Assembly: GCF_014180715.1 (NCBI RefSeq)
Contig: NZ_JACEFC010000009.1
Coordinates: 1-32,019 of the forward strand
Source of the DNA: Nocardioides stalactiti
GTDB taxonomy: Bacteria > Actinomycetota > Actinomycetes > Propionibacteriales > Nocardioidaceae
Direction of reading: 5' to 3'
Length of the DNA stretch: 32,019 bases
The translations under genes were made by a program, and so were the position numbers. Numbering within the stretch: the stretch's first letter is position 1; the number at the start of each line of letters is the position of its first letter. Shown one piece after another: positions 22,790 to 28,955 of this stretch. Below the pieces are notes generated by a model that was not told where the DNA came from, made no database searches, and worked only from the letters and a program-made list of their open reading frames with translations.

Positions 22790-23629
22790 TCAGTGGATCG
22801 TGATGACCCGCACCGGCACCGTGAGCCCCGCCGTGGTGGCACCGGAGAGGTTGCAGACCTTGATGTGGACGACGTCGGTGAGCGCGCGCTGTGCAGTGAT
22901 CGTCATGCCGTCCGGGATCGTCCCGTTGATCGTGAGCAGGGCGACGTCACCGGCCTCTGCCCCGGAGACGTTGCCGCTGATGGTCGTGCACCTCCCGTTC
23001 GACAGGGAGCCGATGCTGATCGACCCGCTGCGGTCGGCGCCGTCGATGTCGTCCATGGCGACCGTGCGGTTCGCGATCTCCGAGCTCGTGACCGCCGAGG
23101 TGGCGATGAGGCTCGAGGTGATCGAGGAGGTGGCGAGGTCGGAGGTGCCGAGCGAGCCGTTGAGGACGTCGCTGCTCGTGATCGAGCCGTCGGAGATGTC
23201 GGCGCCGAAGATCGACGACGGGGCGATGTCATCACCCGTGATCGAGCCGTCGGAGATGTCGCTGCTGAAGATCGACGACGCGGCGATGTCCTCACCCGTG
23301 ATCGAGCCGGTGGCGATGTCGAGGCCGGTGAGGGTGGCGTTGAGGACCTCGCTGGTGGTGACCGAGTCTGAGGCGAGGTCGACGGCGGCCAGCCCGCCGT
23401 CGACCTCGGTGTCGTCGCGCACGTCGAGGGAGGAGACGTTGTTGTTGGTGATCTTCCCGCTCGTCACGTTGTTGTTGGCGAGGTCGGCGGTCTTGACCTC
23501 GCCGTCGACGATGTCGGTGCTGAAGATGGTGTTGGCCGCGTAGGCGGTGCCCGAGCCGAGGGCGATCGTCAGCGCGAGGAACGAGCACACGTTCGCGAAG
23601 GTGAATCCGTTGAGCAGCTTGCTGAGCAT
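22790..23629 (-). CDS. secreted protein with solenoid-like 10/20-residue repeats
   Basis: A 279-residue exported protein. Residues 1-32 are a signal peptide (FANVCSFLALTIALGSGTAYA, cut before AN). From about 35 to 195 there are short degenerate repeats of the form [S/T]-xI-[S/T]-xx-DI-xxSS: DGSITGEDIAASSIFSSDI, DGSITGDDIAPSSIFGADI, DGSITSSDVLNGSLGTSDL. The regular Ile/Leu spacing suggests a parallel beta-helix, as in phage tail-fibre and some cell-surface proteins. The C-terminal about 75 residues are a beta-rich domain (SNGRCTTISGNVSGAEAGDV, VPVRVITIH) with two cysteines. AAGGAG stands eight bases before ATG 23629. Similar repeat proteins are common in actinobacteria without a known role. 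It is divergent from the P450 operon. Confidence 0.75.
   Translation of the reverse strand: MLSKLLNGFTFANVCSFLALTIALGSGTAYAANTIFSTDIVDGEVKTADLANNNVTSGKITNNNVSSLDVRDDTEVDGGLAAVDLASDSVTTSEVLNATLTGLDIATGSITGEDIAASSIFSSDISDGSITGDDIAPSSIFGADISDGSITSSDVLNGSLGTSDLATSSITSSLIATSAVTSSEIANRTVAMDDIDGADRSGSISIGSLSNGRCTTISGNVSGAEAGDVALLTINGTIPDGMTITAQRALTDVVHIKVCNLSGATTAGLTVPVRVITIH
23177..23320 (-). repeat. 60-bp tandem repeat (2.3 copies) within the solenoid protein gene
   Basis: Successive 60-bp units starting near 23177, 23237 and 23297 are nearly identical for most of their length (shared segment GTGATCGAGCCGTCGGAGAT on the plus strand, and GAAGATCGACGACG). Each encodes 20 residues. The high DNA identity compared with the degenerate flanking repeats points to recent duplication. 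Confidence 0.8.
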
Positions 23630-23778: not shown

Positions 23779-23841
23779 GCGGTCTTCCTTGTTGCAGTGG
23801 TCGGGGTGTCCCACGAAACTAGCGGCGAGGAGGTCCAGACG

Positions 23842-26247
23842 ATGAGCGTTCTCGACCAGATCATCAACAAGGCCCAGGCGACGATCCCGATGGAGCGTCA
23901 GGTCCAGGGACTGCACCTGTTCCAGAAGGCCAAGAAGCTGGTGCTCGGTGACCGGCAGCCGGTCTTCATCGAGGAGGAGATCCCCGACGTCGACGACGTC
24001 CCGCTGACCGAGATCGATCTCAGCAACCCGTTCCTCTACGGCCAGGGTCAGTGGCTGCCCTACGCCAAGCGTCTCCGTGACGAGGCGCCGGTGCACTACC
24101 AGGCCAACAGCCCCTTCGGTCCGTACTGGTCGATCACCCGGTACGACGACATCGTCACCGTGGACAAGGACTTCTCGACGTACTCGGCCGAGCCGCAGAT
24201 CGTCATCGGCACCCCGCCGGAGGGCCTGGACATCGAGATGTTCATCGCCATGGACCCGCCGCGCCACGACCAGCAGCGCAACGCCGTCCAGGGTGTCGTG
24301 GCTCCGCAGAACCTCGAGGAGATGGAGGGGCTGATCCGCTCACGAGTGGCGGAGGTCCTCGACTCCCTGCCGGTCGGCGAGCCGTTCGACTGGGTGGACA
24401 AGGTGAGCATCGAGCTCACGTCGCGGATGCTGGCCACCCTGCTCGACTTCCCGTACGAGGACCGCCGCAAGCTCGTGTACTGGACCGAGCTGGCGGGCGC
24501 GAGCGCCTCCGCGACCGGCGGTGCGGTCGACATGGACGAGCTGTACACGGGCGTCGCCGACATGGCGAAGAGCTTCAGCACCCTCTGGCACGACAAGGCC
24601 GCCCGTCTCGCCGGCGGCGAGAAGCCGGGCTACGACCTGATCACCCTGATGCAGATGTCGGAGGACACCAAGGACCTCATCAACCGGCCGATGGAGTTCC
24701 TCGGCAACCTCATCCTGCTGGTCGTGGGTGGCAACGACACCACCCGCAACTCGATGTCGGGCGGGGTCTACGCGCTGAACCAGTTCCCGGACGAGTTCGA
24801 CCGCCTCAAGGCGAACCCCGAGCTCATCCCGAAGCTCGTCCAGGAGATCATCCGGTGGCAGACGCCGCTGGCCTACATGCGTCGGATCGCGACGAAGGAC
24901 ACCGTCCTCAACGGCCAGTTCATCCGGAAGGGCGACAAGGTCGTCATGTGGTACGCCTCGGCCAACCGTGACGAGCGCACGTTCGAGAACCCCGACGACT
25001 TCGTGATCGACCGTCACAACGGACGCCACCACCTCTCGTTCGGGATCGGCGTCCACCGCTGCATGGGGAGCCGAGTGGCCGAGATGCAGCTGCGGATCCT
25101 GTGGGAGGAGCTGCTCGCCCGGTTCTCGGACATCGAGGTCGTCGAGGAGCCGGAGTACCTGCAGTCGAACTTCGTCCGTGGCTACACGAAGATGATGGTG
25201 ACTCTCGCGCCGATCGGTCAGGAGCCTCGGCCCCGGACCCGCGCGGCGGCGGTGCCTCAGCCCACGCGCATCGAATCCCGAAAGGGCTGGGTCACCGGCA
25301 CCGCGGAGAGCGAGGTCGACCTGCAGGTCGCCGCCCGTCGCGAGGTGGCCGACGGGGTCGTCGAGCTCACGCTCGCCCCACCGAACGGCGCCCAGCTCCC
25401 GTCGTGGACCGCGGGCGCGCACATCGACCTCGTCCTCGAGCCGTCGCTGACGCGGCAGTACTCCCTGTGCGGCAGCGCTGCCGACGAGTCGTCGTGGAAG
25501 GTCGGGGTCCTCCTCGACCCGGAGAGCCGCGGCGGCTCGTCGTACGTCCACGAGAAGCTGACGGAGGGCGCGACCGTCCGGGTGCGCGGACCGCGGAACC
25601 ACTTCCCGCTCGTCGCGTCGCCGCGCTACCAGTTCATCGCCGGCGGCATCGGCATCACGCCGATCCTCGCGATGATCGAGGCGGCGGAGGCGCGCGGCGC
25701 CGAGTGGAGCCTGCTGTACGCCGGCCGCACCCGCGCGTCGATGGCCTTCCTCGACCGGTTCGAGGGGGATGCGCGCGTGACGCTGGCGCCGCGCGACGAG
25801 GGAGACCGGCTCGACCTCCCGTCGCTCCTGGCGACGCCGCAGGCGGGGACGCTCGTCTACTGCTGCGGCCCGAGCGGCCTGCTCGACGCGGTCGAGGACG
25901 CGTGCAGCGCCTGGCCGGACGGCAGCGTCCACCTCGAGCGGTTCGCCGCCAAGGAGGTCGTGGCGTCCGAGGACGCGCTCGACTCGTTCGAGGTGGAGTG
26001 CACGCGCACGGGAGTGACCGTGACGGTCACCGAAGGCGTCTCGATCTTCGAGGCGGTCGAGAAGGCCGGCGTCGACGTGCTCGGCTCCTGCATGGAAGGG
26101 ATCTGCGGCACCTGCGAGGCCGACGTCCTCCAGGGCACGCCCGACCACCGTGACTCGATCCTGTCCAAGTCCGAGCGCGAACGCGGCGACACGATCATGA
26201 CCTGCGTCTCCCGATCGCTCTCCAAGAAGCTGGTGCTGGACGTATGA
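23842..26247 (+). CDS. self-sufficient CYP153-type P450 fused to FMN/[2Fe-2S] reductase
   Basis: An 801-residue fusion. Residues about 55-458 are a P450 of the CYP153 family (terminal alkane/fatty-acid hydroxylases): FGPYWSITRYDDI, FIAMDPPRHDQQRNAV, FDWVDKVSIELTSRMLATL, I-helix GGNDTTRNS (296-304), ExxR at E335/R338 in QEIIRWQTPLAYMRR, heme loop FGIGVHRCMG with Cys407. A Pro/Arg linker (about 459-485) follows. The rest is a phthalate dioxygenase reductase/VanB-type module: FMN site RQYSL (538-542), NADH site GGIGITP (601-607), YCCGPSG, and a plant-type [2Fe-2S] domain with Cys750, 755, 758 and 788. So electrons can pass NADH-FMN-FeS-heme in one chain, as in CYP116B (P450RhF). CYP153 enzymes I know of are class I with separate partners. 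GAGGAGG precedes ATG 23842. Stop and next start overlap (ATGA). The first 50 residues are extra. Confidence 0.93.
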   Translation: MSVLDQIINKAQATIPMERQVQGLHLFQKAKKLVLGDRQPVFIEEEIPDVDDVPLTEIDLSNPFLYGQGQWLPYAKRLRDEAPVHYQANSPFGPYWSITRYDDIVTVDKDFSTYSAEPQIVIGTPPEGLDIEMFIAMDPPRHDQQRNAVQGVVAPQNLEEMEGLIRSRVAEVLDSLPVGEPFDWVDKVSIELTSRMLATLLDFPYEDRRKLVYWTELAGASASATGGAVDMDELYTGVADMAKSFSTLWHDKAARLAGGEKPGYDLITLMQMSEDTKDLINRPMEFLGNLILLVVGGNDTTRNSMSGGVYALNQFPDEFDRLKANPELIPKLVQEIIRWQTPLAYMRRIATKDTVLNGQFIRKGDKVVMWYASANRDERTFENPDDFVIDRHNGRHHLSFGIGVHRCMGSRVAEMQLRILWEELLARFSDIEVVEEPEYLQSNFVRGYTKMMVTLAPIGQEPRPRTRAAAVPQPTRIESRKGWVTGTAESEVDLQVAARREVADGVVELTLAPPNGAQLPSWTAGAHIDLVLEPSLTRQYSLCGSAADESSWKVGVLLDPESRGGSSYVHEKLTEGATVRVRGPRNHFPLVASPRYQFIAGGIGITPILAMIEAAEARGAEWSLLYAGRTRASMAFLDRFEGDARVTLAPRDEGDRLDLPSLLATPQAGTLVYCCGPSGLLDAVEDACSAWPDGSVHLERFAAKEVVASEDALDSFEVECTRTGVTVTVTEGVSIFEAVEKAGVDVLGSCMEGICGTCEADVLQGTPDHRDSILSKSERERGDTIMTCVSRSLSKKLVLDV

Positions 26248-27263
26248 GCTACCCCCAGGACTGCTGGTACGTCGCTGCCACCTCCGACGAGGTCGGCGAC
26301 GGGTTCACCGCTCGGCGCATCGTCGACCGGCCCGTCGTGCTCCTCCGCCTCGCCGACGGGTCGATCGCCGCGCTGGAGGACCGCTGTGCGCACCGGCCCT
26401 ACCCGCTGTCGGCCGGCCACCGCGAGGGCGACCTCGTCGTGTGCGGCTACCACGGCTGCACGTACGACGCCACCGGTCGCTGCGTGCGGGTGCCCTCGCA
26501 GGACAACCCGCCCTCAGGGGCGCAGGTGCGCGCCTTCCCGGTGGTCGAGCGCGCCCCGTTCGTCTGGGTCTGGACCGGCACGCCCGGGGGCGAGCGGTTG
26601 CGGCCACCGCCGGCCACGCCCTGTCTTCAGGGTGACGGCTGGAGCAGCGTGGGGGAGCGGCGCGACGTCGCCGCCAACCTGATGCTGCTGCACGAGCACT
26701 ACCTCGACCTGACCAACGTGTTCGCGATGCACCCGGAGATGGTGCCGCCGGGCATCGAGGCGCTGCCGCCGCTGGAGGAGGTCGAGGTGTCCGAGGTCGC
26801 CGTGTCCTACAAGCGCGAGCTGCCGAAGGCGCCGCTGGCGCCGTGGGAGGCGCAGGTCTCCGGCCTCGACGACGTCGCGTCGTACGGCCGCCAGGAGACG
26901 GGCGCGTTCGTGAGCCCTGGCCTGCACCGGCAGACCTACACGATCACCGGTTCCGACGGCCCCGTGCTGGAGCTCGTGCGGACCCACGGCTTCACCCCCG
27001 CGTCGGCGGGGTCGACCCACGTCTTCCTCCAGCTCTCCTGGCGCGGCACCGCGGTCTCGCCCGACGTGGGGGAGCGGCTCGCGGCCGTCTTCCACGAGAT
27101 GGCCACCCGCGACTTCGCCGTGCTGGAGACCATGCAGCGCTGCCTCGACGAGGACGCGACCCCGCGGCGCTACGTCAACGTCCAGGCCGACCGCGCCGCC
27201 CTCCGCGCCCGTCGCATCCTGACGTCGATGGTGGAGGACGAGCGCGGGACGCCCCACCCGTGA
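26244..27263 (+). CDS. Rieske non-heme iron oxygenase, VanA-like
   Basis: A 339-residue oxygenase component of the VanA type. The Rieske [2Fe-2S] ligands are Cys48/His50 and Cys67/His70 in CAHRPYPLSAGH and CGYHGCTYD. The catalytic-domain motif LLHEHYLDLTNVFAMH corresponds to D-x2-H-x4-H of the mononuclear iron site, with Asp155, Asn158 in place of the first His, and His163. Such enzymes O-demethylate or hydroxylate aromatic or other substrates and normally take electrons from a VanB reductase. Here the VanB-like module is fused to the P450 encoded by the overlapping upstream gene, so the two oxygenases may share it. Start ATG 26244 overlaps the upstream stop by 4 bp. Its stop abuts the convergent stop with no gap. 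Confidence 0.85.
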   Translation: MSYPQDCWYVAATSDEVGDGFTARRIVDRPVVLLRLADGSIAALEDRCAHRPYPLSAGHREGDLVVCGYHGCTYDATGRCVRVPSQDNPPSGAQVRAFPVVERAPFVWVWTGTPGGERLRPPPATPCLQGDGWSSVGERRDVAANLMLLHEHYLDLTNVFAMHPEMVPPGIEALPPLEEVEVSEVAVSYKRELPKAPLAPWEAQVSGLDDVASYGRQETGAFVSPGLHRQTYTITGSDGPVLELVRTHGFTPASAGSTHVFLQLSWRGTAVSPDVGERLAAVFHEMATRDFAVLETMQRCLDEDATPRRYVNVQADRAALRARRILTSMVEDERGTPHP

Positions 27264-27854
27264 TCAGAAGGGGCGGGGCGGGAGGGGCTTGATGAGCGGG
27301 TCGAGCAGCTGGGACGACTGCTCGACGGTGAGGACCTCGGACGGGTCGAGCGGGATGATCTGCCGCTGGGCCTCGTCGACCTCCCAGACGTCCTCGCCGA
27401 CCAGGCGGCCCTCGTCGTCGTAGGGCCAGATCATGTGCTCGACGTTGGCGACCAGGTAGTGGCTCTGGGGGTCCACGGGCGCCCCGGCCTCGACGAGGAG
27501 CCGGCCGGGGGTCTGTTGGTAGATGGTGGCCGTCGAGACGATCATGTTGTCGCCGACGGCGAGCTTCTCGTCGGTGGCGTAGAAGACGCACTGGGCCGTG
27601 CGGGACCACTCCTCGTAGACGGCCTGGACCGCCTCAGCGCCCTCGAGGACGGTGTTGATGCCGAAGACGTTGAAGTGGTACACGGGGTGCTCGACGGTCA
27701 TCTCCGGGGCGAAGATGTCCTTCCAGCGGCCGGCCATCTCCAGGTAGCGATGACGGTTGTAGGCCTGCAGCAGCCAGTGGTGCCGCGGGTTGGTGGTGGT
27801 CTCGAGCAGGCGCTCGACGGCGATGTTGGTCTGGGTGATGTCGAAACGACTCAT
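27264..27854 (-). CDS. SnoaL/NTF2-like protein
   Basis: A 196-residue protein of the NTF2-like (SnoaL/limonene-epoxide-hydrolase) fold: HHWLLQAYNRHRYLEMAGRW, MTVEHPVYHFNVFGINTVLE, GAEAVQAVYEEWSRTAQCVF, DNMIVSTATIYQQ and HMIWPYDDEGRLVGEDVWE, the helix-then-sheet pattern of the cone-shaped fold. Members include small hydrolases, isomerases, and non-catalytic binders. The conserved His/Glu-rich cavity (VEHPVYHFN, NVEHMIW) suggests a ligand pocket, but no family catalytic set is recognised. GGGAGAA stands before ATG 27854. It is convergent with the Rieske gene (stops at 27263 and 27264 meet in TGATCA) and divergent from the AraC gene. It may share the pathway and be controlled from the repeats at 27921-27958. 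Confidence 0.72.
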   Translation of the reverse strand: MSRFDITQTNIAVERLLETTTNPRHHWLLQAYNRHRYLEMAGRWKDIFAPEMTVEHPVYHFNVFGINTVLEGAEAVQAVYEEWSRTAQCVFYATDEKLAVGDNMIVSTATIYQQTPGRLLVEAGAPVDPQSHYLVANVEHMIWPYDDEGRLVGEDVWEVDEAQRQIIPLDPSEVLTVEQSSQLLDPLIKPLPPRPF

Positions 27855-27920
27855 GAGGTTCTCCCTTGGTGAGTGGCCCTGGCGGGCACTCAAGGGTCAC
27901 CCGGACCGCCGCACCAGGTA

Positions 27921-27958
27921 TTGACTCTCGACGACATCTTCTTGACTCTGGACGACAT
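27921..27958. promoter_or_regulatory. AraC-type operator candidate: two 17-bp direct repeats 21 bp apart
   Basis: TTGACTCTCGACGACAT (27921-27937) recurs as TTGACTCTGGACGACAT (27942-27958), one mismatch in 17. The offset is 21 bp, two helical turns, the same geometry as the 17-bp AraC half-sites araI1/araI2. The second copy ends within the ATG of the AraC-family gene (27957) and the pair lies 67 bp before the divergent NTF2-like gene. The repeat is seen; binding is inferred. Confidence 0.5.
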
Positions 27959-28955
27959 GTCGCTCATTCGAGGAACTGCCTTGCAAGGCTTCGTCGACCT
28001 CGCGAGCGACCTCGGTGCCGACCCGTACCCCCTGCTTCGCCGAGCGCACCTCGACCCGGCTGGCGTCGGCAGCCACGACAGCTACCTGGAGTACCGCGGC
28101 GTGATCGCGGCGCTCGAGGCTGCCGCACGGGCGACCGGCGCTGGTGACTTCGGCCGCCTGCTGGCGCACCGGCAAGGACTCGACATCCTCGGCCCGCTCG
28201 GCGTCGCCGCCAAGACCGCACCCTCCGTGGGTGCGGCGCTGGCGTCCATCGAGAAGTACATGGCGATCTACAGCCCTGCCATCTCGATCACCGTCACCTG
28301 GTCCGCGGGCGACGACCTGGCGAGGTTCGAGTGGCGCATCATCGCTGAGCGACCACCGGCGCACCGGCAGGCAGCCGAGCTCGCACTGGGTGTGTCCTGC
28401 CAGGTGTTCCGCCTCCTGGCAGGACCCGAGTTCCGTCCCACCCGGGTCCGGCTCCGGCACCAGGCGCTCACCGACGCCGACGCCTACGAGGAGTACTTCG
28501 GCTGTCCGGTCGAGTTCGCCGGTGACGCCTACGGCTTCTGGTTCCCCGCCTCGGTCCTCGCGCTGCCGATGGACGCCGACAGCGCAGTGCACGCCGTCGT
28601 CGAGGAGTACCTCGACACGGTCGCACTGCCCGACGCCACGAGCACCGGGGAGAACGTCCGGCGGTTGGTGCGCACGATGCTGCCGACCGGCGCCCTGACC
28701 CTCGAGCTGGTCTGCGCCCAGCTGGCGGTGCATCCCCGGACGCTCCAACGCGACCTGGCGAAGAAGAGCACCTCCTTCGCCGCCATCGTCGACGACGTAC
28801 GACGCGAGGAAGCCGAGCGATACCTGCGCGACACCGAGATGCCGCTCGGCCAGCTGGCCGGCGTCCTCGGTCTCAGCGAGCAGAGCGCGCTGACCCGCGC
28901 GTGTCGACGCTGGTTCGACCTGCCACCCTCCAAGGTCCGCTCCACAGCGCGGTAG
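27957..28955 (+). CDS. AraC-family transcriptional regulator (Arabinose_bd N-domain plus C-terminal HTH)
   Basis: A 332-residue regulator of the same class as the one at 849. The start MSLIRGTALQGFVDLASDLG is typical of the class, which supports ATG 27957 although the frame is open upstream. The ligand-sensing region runs to about 225. The HTH region has LVCAQLAVHPRTLQRDLAKK and LGQLAGVLGLSEQSALTRAC, ending RRWFDLPPSKVRSTAR. It sits between the P450-Rieske operon and the SDR/acyl-CoA synthetase pair. An AraC-family regulator (CypR) is reported to control a CYP153 gene in Dietzia, so control of the P450 operon, in response to alkane or fatty alcohol/acid, is likely. The direct repeats at its start suggest autoregulation. 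Confidence 0.88.
   Translation: MSLIRGTALQGFVDLASDLGADPYPLLRRAHLDPAGVGSHDSYLEYRGVIAALEAAARATGAGDFGRLLAHRQGLDILGPLGVAAKTAPSVGAALASIEKYMAIYSPAISITVTWSAGDDLARFEWRIIAERPPAHRQAAELALGVSCQVFRLLAGPEFRPTRVRLRHQALTDADAYEEYFGCPVEFAGDAYGFWFPASVLALPMDADSAVHAVVEEYLDTVALPDATSTGENVRRLVRTMLPTGALTLELVCAQLAVHPRTLQRDLAKKSTSFAAIVDDVRREEAERYLRDTEMPLGQLAGVLGLSEQSALTRACRRWFDLPPSKVRSTAR

What the first reader, a model, noticed from the sequence alone, without database searches (positions are those of the whole stretch)
23842..26247. Natural CYP153 P450 fused to a PDR/VanB-type reductase
Seen: one unbroken 801-residue frame holds a CYP153-pattern P450 (GGNDTTRNS, EIIRWQTPLAYMRR, heme Cys407) and a complete FMN-NADH-[2Fe-2S] module with four Cys ligands. 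Known: CYP153 alkane hydroxylases are class I, using separate ferredoxin and reductase; the same reductase type is naturally fused in CYP116B, and CYP153-RhFRED chimeras have been built artificially. Inference: this is a self-sufficient terminal hydroxylase produced by evolution. I cannot exclude that similar fusions are already catalogued.
Basis: partly seen in the sequence, partly recalled or inferred. Interest (0 to 1): 0.82.

Follow-up and report, generated by a model that had tools for sequence, protein, structure and literature searches.

The report
Naturally fused alkane-hydroxylase P450 with Rieske partner
A soil bacterium carries, as one protein, an alkane- and fatty-acid-oxidising type of P450 enzyme together with its whole electron supply, a combination I otherwise found only as laboratory constructs, and in most relatives it is encoded directly beside an unusual iron-sulfur protein that may share the same electron supply.

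Summary
Window 23842-26247 is one intact 801-residue frame: a CYP153A P450 (66% identical to PDB 5fyf) fused to a complete phthalate-dioxygenase-reductase (PDR)/VanB-type reductase. It is no assembly accident: I found 34 distinct fusion loci, in Actinomycetota and in Solimonas. The fused P450s form one clade inside CYP153 and the fused reductases one clade apart from CYP116B reductases, so this is a P450-PDR fusion independent of CYP116B. None of 33 distinct fusion loci tested has a CYP153-type ferredoxin or ferredoxin reductase gene nearby; 22 of 31 unfused CYP153 loci have both. A self-sufficient terminal hydroxylase is the best reading; no chemistry was tested.

In 21 of 34 loci, including the window, a VanA-type Rieske protein follows the fusion, its start overlapping the stop codon in 20 of 20 loci inspected. 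PDR/VanB reductases normally serve such proteins. It keeps the Rieske ligands, but the usual Asn and first iron-binding His have exchanged places (HEHYLDLTN; canonical DNLLDLSH). All 30 homologues fetched from Pseudomonadota are canonical. Unfused relatives beside separate PDR reductases have lost metal ligands yet stay under purifying selection. New variant of a known kind, with a testable shared-reductase hypothesis.

The parts
23828..23833 (+). AGGAGG ribosome-binding site, eight bases before ATG 23842
   Evidence: sequence read
23842..25215 (+). CYP153A P450 domain, residues 1-458 (heme ligand C407)
   Evidence: 66.4% identity to 5fyf over 453 positions; nested in the CYP153 clade
25219..25338 (+). 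Variable linker, residues 460-499 (35-63 residues between the flanking invariant positions in 20 sequences)
   Evidence: mean identity to the window 42%, against 72-82% in the domains
25339..25956 (+). FMN- and NAD(P)-binding part of the PDR/VanB-type reductase, residues 500-705
25975..26244 (+). C-terminal [2Fe-2S] ferredoxin domain, residues 712-801, Cys 750/755/758/788
26244..27263 (+). VanA-type Rieske protein (339 aa), start codon overlapping the fusion's stop (ATGA); Rieske C48 H50 C67 H70; iron-site positions H152 D155 N158 H163 D290, Asn and His exchanged relative to canonical members

Best explanation
The 801-residue protein is a natural, self-sufficient CYP153A monooxygenase. Electrons go from NAD(P)H to FMN to the C-terminal [2Fe-2S] cluster and then, within the same chain across a flexible linker, to the heme, which hydroxylates the end of a medium-chain alkane or fatty acid. 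It arose once, when an actinobacterial CYP153A gene joined a PDR/VanB-type reductase gene, probably from a Rieske-protein operon, independently of CYP116B. In the 21 of 34 loci with the overlapping or adjoining Rieske gene, the same reductase domain probably also reduces that Rieske protein, so that one reductase feeds two terminal proteins. Shown by sequence: architecture, conserved cofactor residues, single origin, absence of adjacent ferredoxin and ferredoxin reductase genes, gene overlap. Inferred: electron path, substrate class, self-sufficiency, donor operon, in-trans supply of the Rieske protein.
For: Intact frame and motif residues conserved in 20 sequences. Near whole-length match to the full-length CYP116B-type structures 6kbh and 6laa. 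Fused P450s one clade, 100/99 support, inside actinobacterial CYP153. Fused reductases one clade, 100/99, apart from the reductases of three CYP116B-type fusions, whose P450s match P450 RhF and its kin. Ferredoxin and ferredoxin reductase genes within 3 kb, as far as flanks were held: 0 of 34 fusion loci (33 distinct), 22 of 31 unfused loci; the host's two other CYP153 genes have both. Thirteen of 34 fusion loci lack the Rieske gene; of the 12 such genomes searched, 7 have no match at E <= 1e-10 and 5 only partial ones (at most 40% identity, at most 166 of 339 residues), so the fusion is kept without it. Where the Rieske gene is present, its start overlaps the fusion's stop in 20 of 20 loci printed, and no second PDR reductase showed in the flanks held, up to 6 kb.
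Against: No activity, cofactor or substrate data. The nearest unfused P450s (L052, L055) have no recognised redox genes beside them, so absence of ferredoxin genes is not by itself proof of self-sufficiency. AlphaFold models were too poor to judge domain contacts (mean pLDDT 52.9 and 45.1). The Rieske protein has a non-canonical iron site and may not be an oxygenase. No unfused reductase is resolved as sister to the fused ones, so the donor operon is a guess.
Confidence: 0.8

Rival explanations
1. The Rieske partner is a catalytically dead (pseudo-oxygenase) subunit that acts as scaffold or electron relay for the P450-reductase, not as a second oxygenase.
For: First iron His replaced by Asn in every fusion-associated copy read (19 rows, 8 of 8). 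Fourteen relatives directly beside unfused PDR reductases lost one to three of the four Rieske ligands and two or three of the three iron ligands but stay under purifying selection, dN/dS 0.095-0.222 in 4 pairs; they form a clade sister to the fusion type plus L134.
Against: In the fusion clade and L134 the Rieske ligands, second His and Asp are all kept, and a new His sits exactly where the canonical Asn was, which looks like ligand relocation rather than decay.
Confidence: 0.35
2. The reductase domain serves mainly the Rieske protein, and the P450 domain still relies on the host's separate CYP153 ferredoxin and reductase.
For: The host has two other CYP153 operons with ferredoxin and reductase. 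PDR/VanB reductases normally serve Rieske oxygenases (family knowledge).
Against: Thirteen of 34 fusions have no Rieske gene beside them, and the 12 such genomes searched hold at most partial relatives of 40% identity or less; yet the reductase motifs are conserved in those of them that were aligned.
Confidence: 0.1
3. The Rieske gene is an unrelated neighbour that merely shares the transcript.
For: It is missing from 13 of 34 loci.
Against: Start-stop overlap in 20 of 20 loci printed; its nearest relatives outside the fusion also sit directly beside a PDR reductase; it pairs Solimonas fluminis with Gordonia asplenii just as the P450 does.
Confidence: 0.12
4. The protein is simply a divergent CYP116B (class VII) enzyme.
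For: Same domain order; phmmer aligns it nearly whole with 6kbh and 6laa.
Against: P450 domain only 28-30% identical to three CYP116B-type fusions and 66% to a CYP153A structure; both halves lie outside the CYP116B-type clades.
Confidence: 0.02

Closest known systems
CYP116B class VII self-sufficient P450s (P450 RhF, CYP116B46)
   Same: P450 followed by FMN/NAD(P)H module and C-terminal [2Fe-2S] in one chain; near whole-length alignment with 6kbh and 6laa
   Different: Different P450 family and an independent fusion event. The two annotated CYP116B-type loci looked at (L138, L139) have no Rieske gene directly after them
CYP153A alkane/fatty-acid omega-hydroxylases (PDB 5fyf; that it is the Marinobacter aquaeolei enzyme is recalled)
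   Same: 66.4% identity, all P450 motifs
   Different: Known ones are class I with separate ferredoxin and ferredoxin reductase; here these are replaced by a fused reductase
Artificial CYP153A-Pfor and CYP153A-CPR chimeras (PMC3815936, passages read)
   Same: CYP153A joined to the CYP116B3 reductase is the laboratory version of the same design
   Different: Natural, with a reductase not from CYP116B and its own linker of 35-63 residues
VanAB-type two-component Rieske O-demethylases; dicamba O-demethylase (3gb4); 7qwt
   Same: Pfam Rieske and VanA_C; nearest structures 7qwt and 3gb4; partner reductase of PDR/VanB type
   Different: Reductase is part of a P450; canonical Asn and first iron His have exchanged positions
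P450 + PDR + VanA-like neighbourhoods, unfused (L134 Mycobacterium paragordonae plasmid; L014/L185 and L183, L184, L187-L189 in the window's genus)
   Same: Same reductase and Rieske families side by side, a P450 nearby
   Different: P450s of other families (nearest structures P450tol/P450terp for L134 and CYP125-ancestor/CYP124 for L183), separate genes, more degenerate Rieske proteins in the genus loci

Membership tests
CYP153 (CYP153A) | Sequence identity within family range (above 40%; subfamily above about 55%, thresholds recalled) | tested here: met
   66.4% over 453 positions to 5fyf; 66.6% over residues 1-472 to the plasmid CYP153 of M. chubuense NBB4
CYP153 (CYP153A) | Phylogenetic position inside CYP153 | tested here: met
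   63-row tree, CYP153 clade 100/100, fused rows nested beside actinobacterial unfused ones
CYP153 (CYP153A) | Class I: separate ferredoxin and ferredoxin reductase | tested here: not met
   0 of 34 fusion loci (33 distinct) have either gene within 3 kb, as far as flanks were held; genes elsewhere in the genome are not excluded
CYP153 (CYP153A) | Terminal hydroxylation of alkanes or fatty acids | not testable with these tools
   needs enzyme assay
Class VII self-sufficient P450 (architecture) | P450 fused to PDR-type FMN/NAD(P)H/[2Fe-2S] module in one chain | tested here: met
Class VII self-sufficient P450 (architecture) | Catalysis without added redox partners | not testable with these tools
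   needs purified protein
CYP116B | P450 and reductase domains fall with CYP116B | tested here: not met
   separate clades in both trees; the three reference fusions match P450 RhF 6ro8 and 6kbh/6laa
VanA-type Rieske oxygenase (gene 26244-27263) | Rieske and VanA_C domains | tested here: met
   68.9 and 141.3 bits, above the curated cut-offs
VanA-type Rieske oxygenase (gene 26244-27263) | Rieske cluster ligands C-x-H ... C-x2-H | tested here: met
   C48, H50, C67, H70 invariant in 16 sequences
VanA-type Rieske oxygenase (gene 26244-27263) | 2-His-1-carboxylate iron ligands at canonical positions | tested here: not met
   first His is N158 and canonical Asn is H152; H163 and D290 kept
VanA-type Rieske oxygenase (gene 26244-27263) | Oxygenase activity | not testable with these tools
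   needs assay; AlphaFold model too poor

The most novel reading that the evidence does not exclude
A two-oxygenase operon with a single, P450-borne reductase: the fused PDR domain reduces its own CYP153 heme in cis and, in trans, a translationally coupled Rieske oxygenase whose mononuclear iron site has been rebuilt, with the first His ligand moved six residues upstream onto the canonical Asn position (H152/H163/D290 instead of the canonical H-H-D positions).
Probability: 0.3. Interest if true: 0.82.

Novelty: new variant of a known kind. Interest (0 to 1): 0.62.

Why it matters
CYP153 enzymes are wanted for terminal C-H oxidation, but their three-component electron chain is a bottleneck. Laboratories have therefore built CYP153-reductase chimeras, with coupling of 22-73% where a value is given in the table seen. 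Here evolution has made the same design at least once and kept it across several actinobacterial families and in Solimonas. That offers about 34 natural linker and interface solutions to test. It also shows that P450-PDR fusion is not unique to CYP116B. The overlapping Rieske gene with exchanged Asn/His positions, and its metal-poor relatives beside separate PDR reductases, raise a directly testable question: can one reductase domain serve a heme and a Rieske protein, and can a Rieske iron site relocate a ligand?

Tried and rejected
Tried without gain. AlphaFold2 models of the Rieske protein (mean pLDDT 45.1) and of the fusion (52.9) were too poor, probably because the alignments held only 16 and 20 close sequences, so no fold search was run. 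The NCBIfam hits of the fusion were all below their cut-offs, best P450_SolI; no function was taken from them. The Pfam p450 match is limited to residues 327-429, although phmmer covers 5-460.

Considered and rejected. Assembly artefact: 34 distinct loci, including a complete Tsukamurella chromosome (L034) and a complete plasmid (L123). CYP116B membership. GTG 23662 as the start: one search shows the Met of 23842 conserved.

An earlier tally of 35 loci, 22 of them with the Rieske gene, held one repeat: L152 is 99.8% identical to L027 in its reductase part. The right figures are 34 and 21. L103, L105, L145, L147, L149, L150, L151, L196 and L197 are also second copies of scanned loci and are not counted. 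Of L146 only the last 157 residues of the P450 part lie in the DNA held; from there to the end of the reductase the frame is open.

Against my reading, told plainly. The reductase tree leaves most unfused rows in a polytomy, so the donor is not identified. The Solimonas row L033 sits with Gordonia asplenii in the P450 and Rieske trees but with Nocardioides marmorisolisilvae, unstarred, in the reductase tree. The other Solimonas row, L038, stands apart and has no Rieske gene. The window's AraC gene, SnoaL-like gene, SDR and acyl-CoA ligase are not conserved at the same place beside other fusions, so they give no substrate clue.

Literature. Ten searches, all answered, over open-licence PMC papers only. 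In what they listed, and in the passages I read, CYP153 fusions were artificial; I saw no natural CYP153-PDR fusion. Most listed papers were seen as listing only. Subscription papers, and the Nie et al. 2014 survey that I wanted (not held), were not seen, so this is no proof that it is not in print. Passages, not whole texts, were read of PMC12416667, PMC8784404, PMC3743902, PMC3815936, PMC7260179, PMC8449657, PMC8479775, PMC13288931 and PMC10511449.

Rows dropped. L032 and L049 were left out of the Rieske alignment; 82 rows of the 102 that passed the length filter; second copies and the wider copies L183-L191 were left out, and four further copies of the window and L032 before that; 63 rows, with 23 of the 34 fused loci and 12 of 43 proteobacterial loci; 45 rows, with 16 of 21 fusion-associated Rieske genes; the nine ligand columns were not removed from that tree.
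Full report
OBSERVATION. Window 23842-26247 (+) is an unbroken 801-residue frame with a good ribosome-binding site. Pfam reports p450, NAD_binding_1 and Fer2 above their cut-offs. phmmer matches residues 5-460 to CYP153A-type structures at E about 1e-211 and residues 77-800 to the full-length P450-reductase structure 6kbh. The reductase half aligns over nearly its whole length with phthalate dioxygenase reductase 2pia and with the reductase half of 6kbh. In 20 aligned sequences (window plus 19) the P450 signature residues, the FMN and NAD motifs and the four cluster cysteines are invariant or 19 of 20. The only loose part is the linker: 35-63 residues between flanking invariant positions, with 42% mean identity to the window against 82% (P450), 72% (FMN/NAD) and 82% (ferredoxin).

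HOW COMMON. One scan of species-representative genomes, capped at the best 80, returned 30 full-length fusions among 78 loci: Nocardioides, Marmoricola, Gordonia, Jongsikchunia, Tsukamurella, Williamsia, Rhodococcus/Rhodococcoides, Actinomycetospora, an unnamed Nocardioidaceae and two Solimonas. With the window, L104, a Tsukamurella tyrosinosolvens plasmid (L123) and one more genome of the window's genus (L146) there are 34 distinct loci, after repeats were removed. In an even draw of 393 genomes of the class, four including the window's own matched over the whole length; in the family of Solimonas 2 of 58, the same two as. It is rare but widespread. The plasmid copy is annotated 'cytochrome P450/oxidoreductase'.

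FAMILY AND ORIGIN. The P450 domain is 66.4% identical to 5fyf over 453 positions (that 5fyf is CYP153A33 of Marinobacter is recalled). In a 63-row tree the 23 fused P450 domains used form one clade (100/99), nested in actinobacterial CYP153, with unfused Skermania and Antrihabitans genes as nearest sisters; CYP116B-type P450s lie far away. In an 82-row tree the 33 fused reductases are one clade (100/99) and the reductases of three CYP116B-type fusions another (98/83). These three (L016, L138, L139) match 6kbh, 6laa and P450 RhF 6ro8. So the fusion arose once and independently of CYP116B. Solimonas fluminis groups with Gordonia asplenii in the P450 tree (99/91) and the Rieske tree (100/96), which suggests transfer of the pair between phyla; the reductase tree does not repeat this grouping.

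REDOX PARTNERS. Using the ferredoxin and ferredoxin reductase of the M. chubuense NBB4 CYP153 operon as queries, 0 of 34 fusion loci (33 distinct, L105 repeats L054) have either within 3 kb, as far as flanks were held, whereas 22 of 31 unfused CYP153 loci have both (NBB4 itself counted). The nine without are L052, L055, L057, L058 and five proteobacterial loci, where the query may be too distant. Among the frames beside L052 and L055 that were scanned, Pfam shows regulators, DNA ligase, a transporter, an enoyl-CoA hydratase and a luciferase-like protein, and no ferredoxin. The window's genome holds two further, unfused CYP153 genes, both in AraC-ferredoxin-P450-reductase order. The fusion is therefore an additional system in this host, not a replacement.

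THE NEXT GENE. 26244-27263 encodes a Rieske/VanA_C protein whose ATG overlaps the fusion's stop (ATGA). A Rieske orthologue follows the fusion in 18 of the 30 scanned loci, and in 21 of the 34 distinct loci with the window, L123 and L146. The overlap is ATGA or GTGA in 20 of 20 loci printed; in several the homologous part begins 6-36 bases further on, and for L123 the annotation starts at the overlap too. In the window's genome it is the only VanA_C match. Twelve of the 13 genomes lacking the gene were searched: 7 have no match at E <= 1e-10, 5 only partial ones of at most 40% identity. No second PDR-type reductase was found in the flanks held, up to 6 kb, of the fusion loci scanned. VanA-type oxygenases normally take electrons from this reductase family (family knowledge), so a shared supply is the natural hypothesis.

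AN UNUSUAL IRON SITE. phmmer alignments with 7qwt and 3gb4 run through the iron-site helix without gaps. Where canonical members have DNLLDLSHxxYxH, the window has EHYLDLTNVFAMH: the canonical Asn is H152, the first iron His is N158, and H163 and D290 are kept. Which residues bind iron in dicamba monooxygenase is recalled. This state is the same in the window and all 18 orthologue rows and in 8 of 8 rows L145-L152 (six of these repeat genomes already counted). H152, D155, N158, H163, D290 and the Rieske ligands C48, H50, C67, H70 are invariant in 16 sequences. Of 299 Pseudomonadota genomes, 42 gave 52 matches; the 30 loci fetched are 30 of 30 canonical, as are the 14 canonical-type loci read. 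Relatives beside unfused PDR reductases differ again. L134 (M. paragordonae plasmid; P450, aldehyde dehydrogenase, PDR, Rieske) has H-D-Y-H with all else kept. Fourteen loci in the window's genus have lost ligands: ten read DHSS|NDHD|V, one CHST|NDHD|V, one CHAT|NDHD|V and two CHCC|NDQA|V; a PDR reductase lies beside 14 of 14 and a P450 within the short flanks of 8 of 14. The tree puts fusion-associated proteins with L134 (100/97) and these degenerate ones as their sister clade (100/97), all in one clade apart from the canonical rows (99/96). dN/dS is 0.146-0.241 in seven pairs of fusion-associated genes, 0.095-0.222 in four pairs of degenerate ones and 0.097 in one canonical pair, so all are under purifying selection. 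In the fusion clade and L134 a His stands at the Asn position in the same lineage that lost the first His, which suggests relocation of a ligand. In the other clade ligands are simply gone, which suggests a structural or regulatory role. Both readings stay open.

A PORTABLE MODULE. The P450s near the unfused PDR-Rieske pairs are not CYP153 in the cases examined. Their nearest solved structures are P450tol and P450terp for L134 and CYP125-type ancestors and CYP124 for L183. The reductase-Rieske pair thus stands beside at least three kinds of P450, and was fused in one of them.

MECHANISM. [quoted passage not shown] Substrates are expected to be alkanes or fatty acids by family. None of this was tested. 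The role of the Rieske protein is hypothesis only.

PRIOR KNOWLEDGE. Ten searches over open-licence papers and the passages read showed CYP153 fusions only as laboratory constructs, for example CYP153A-Pfor and CYP153A-CPR (PMC3815936, passages). A review treats CYP153 as class I (PMC8479775, passages). I cannot exclude reports in papers not held.

VERDICT. As a P450 it is a new variant of a known kind. The adjoining Rieske gene is the more surprising part.

Noticed in passing
L153-L165, L167 and L183, L184, L187-L189 (window's genus): VanA-like proteins that have lost Rieske and iron ligands, conserved beside PDR reductases and often a P450; in several genomes also with glutamine-synthetase-like, permease, LigB-type dioxygenase and gamma-glutamyl-hydrolase-like genes, reminiscent of gamma-glutamylated amine catabolism.
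   Followed up: partly
L134:1142-6083: M. paragordonae plasmid operon P450 - aldehyde dehydrogenase - PDR reductase - Rieske protein, the last two overlapping by four bases, with a Tyr at the first iron-His position.
   Followed up: partly
L192:4289-6435: Rearranged copy with reductase and Rieske genes but without the P450 domain; the reductase frame runs upstream into unrelated sequence.
   Followed up: partly
L193:6453-6827: Remnant of the fusion-type Rieske gene (78% over 125 residues), with no reductase or P450 match in the 13 kb region.
   Followed up: no
L182:3920-6224 (window's genome, contig C25): A second P450 (about 31-34% to the window's) divergent from a separate PDR-type reductase (54-55%), without a Rieske gene detected in the 9.5 kb read.
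   Followed up: no
window 27873-28955: AraC-type regulator matching QhpR, GliR and CypR models below their cut-offs, close to the fusion but not conserved beside other fusions.
   Followed up: no
window 27264-27893 (-): 209-residue frame between the Rieske gene and the AraC gene with no Pfam or NCBIfam match; looks SnoaL/NTF2-like by eye only.
   Followed up: no
window 22790-23629 (-): Repeat-like 279-residue protein with no Pfam match, divergent from the fusion; looks secreted by eye only.
   Followed up: no
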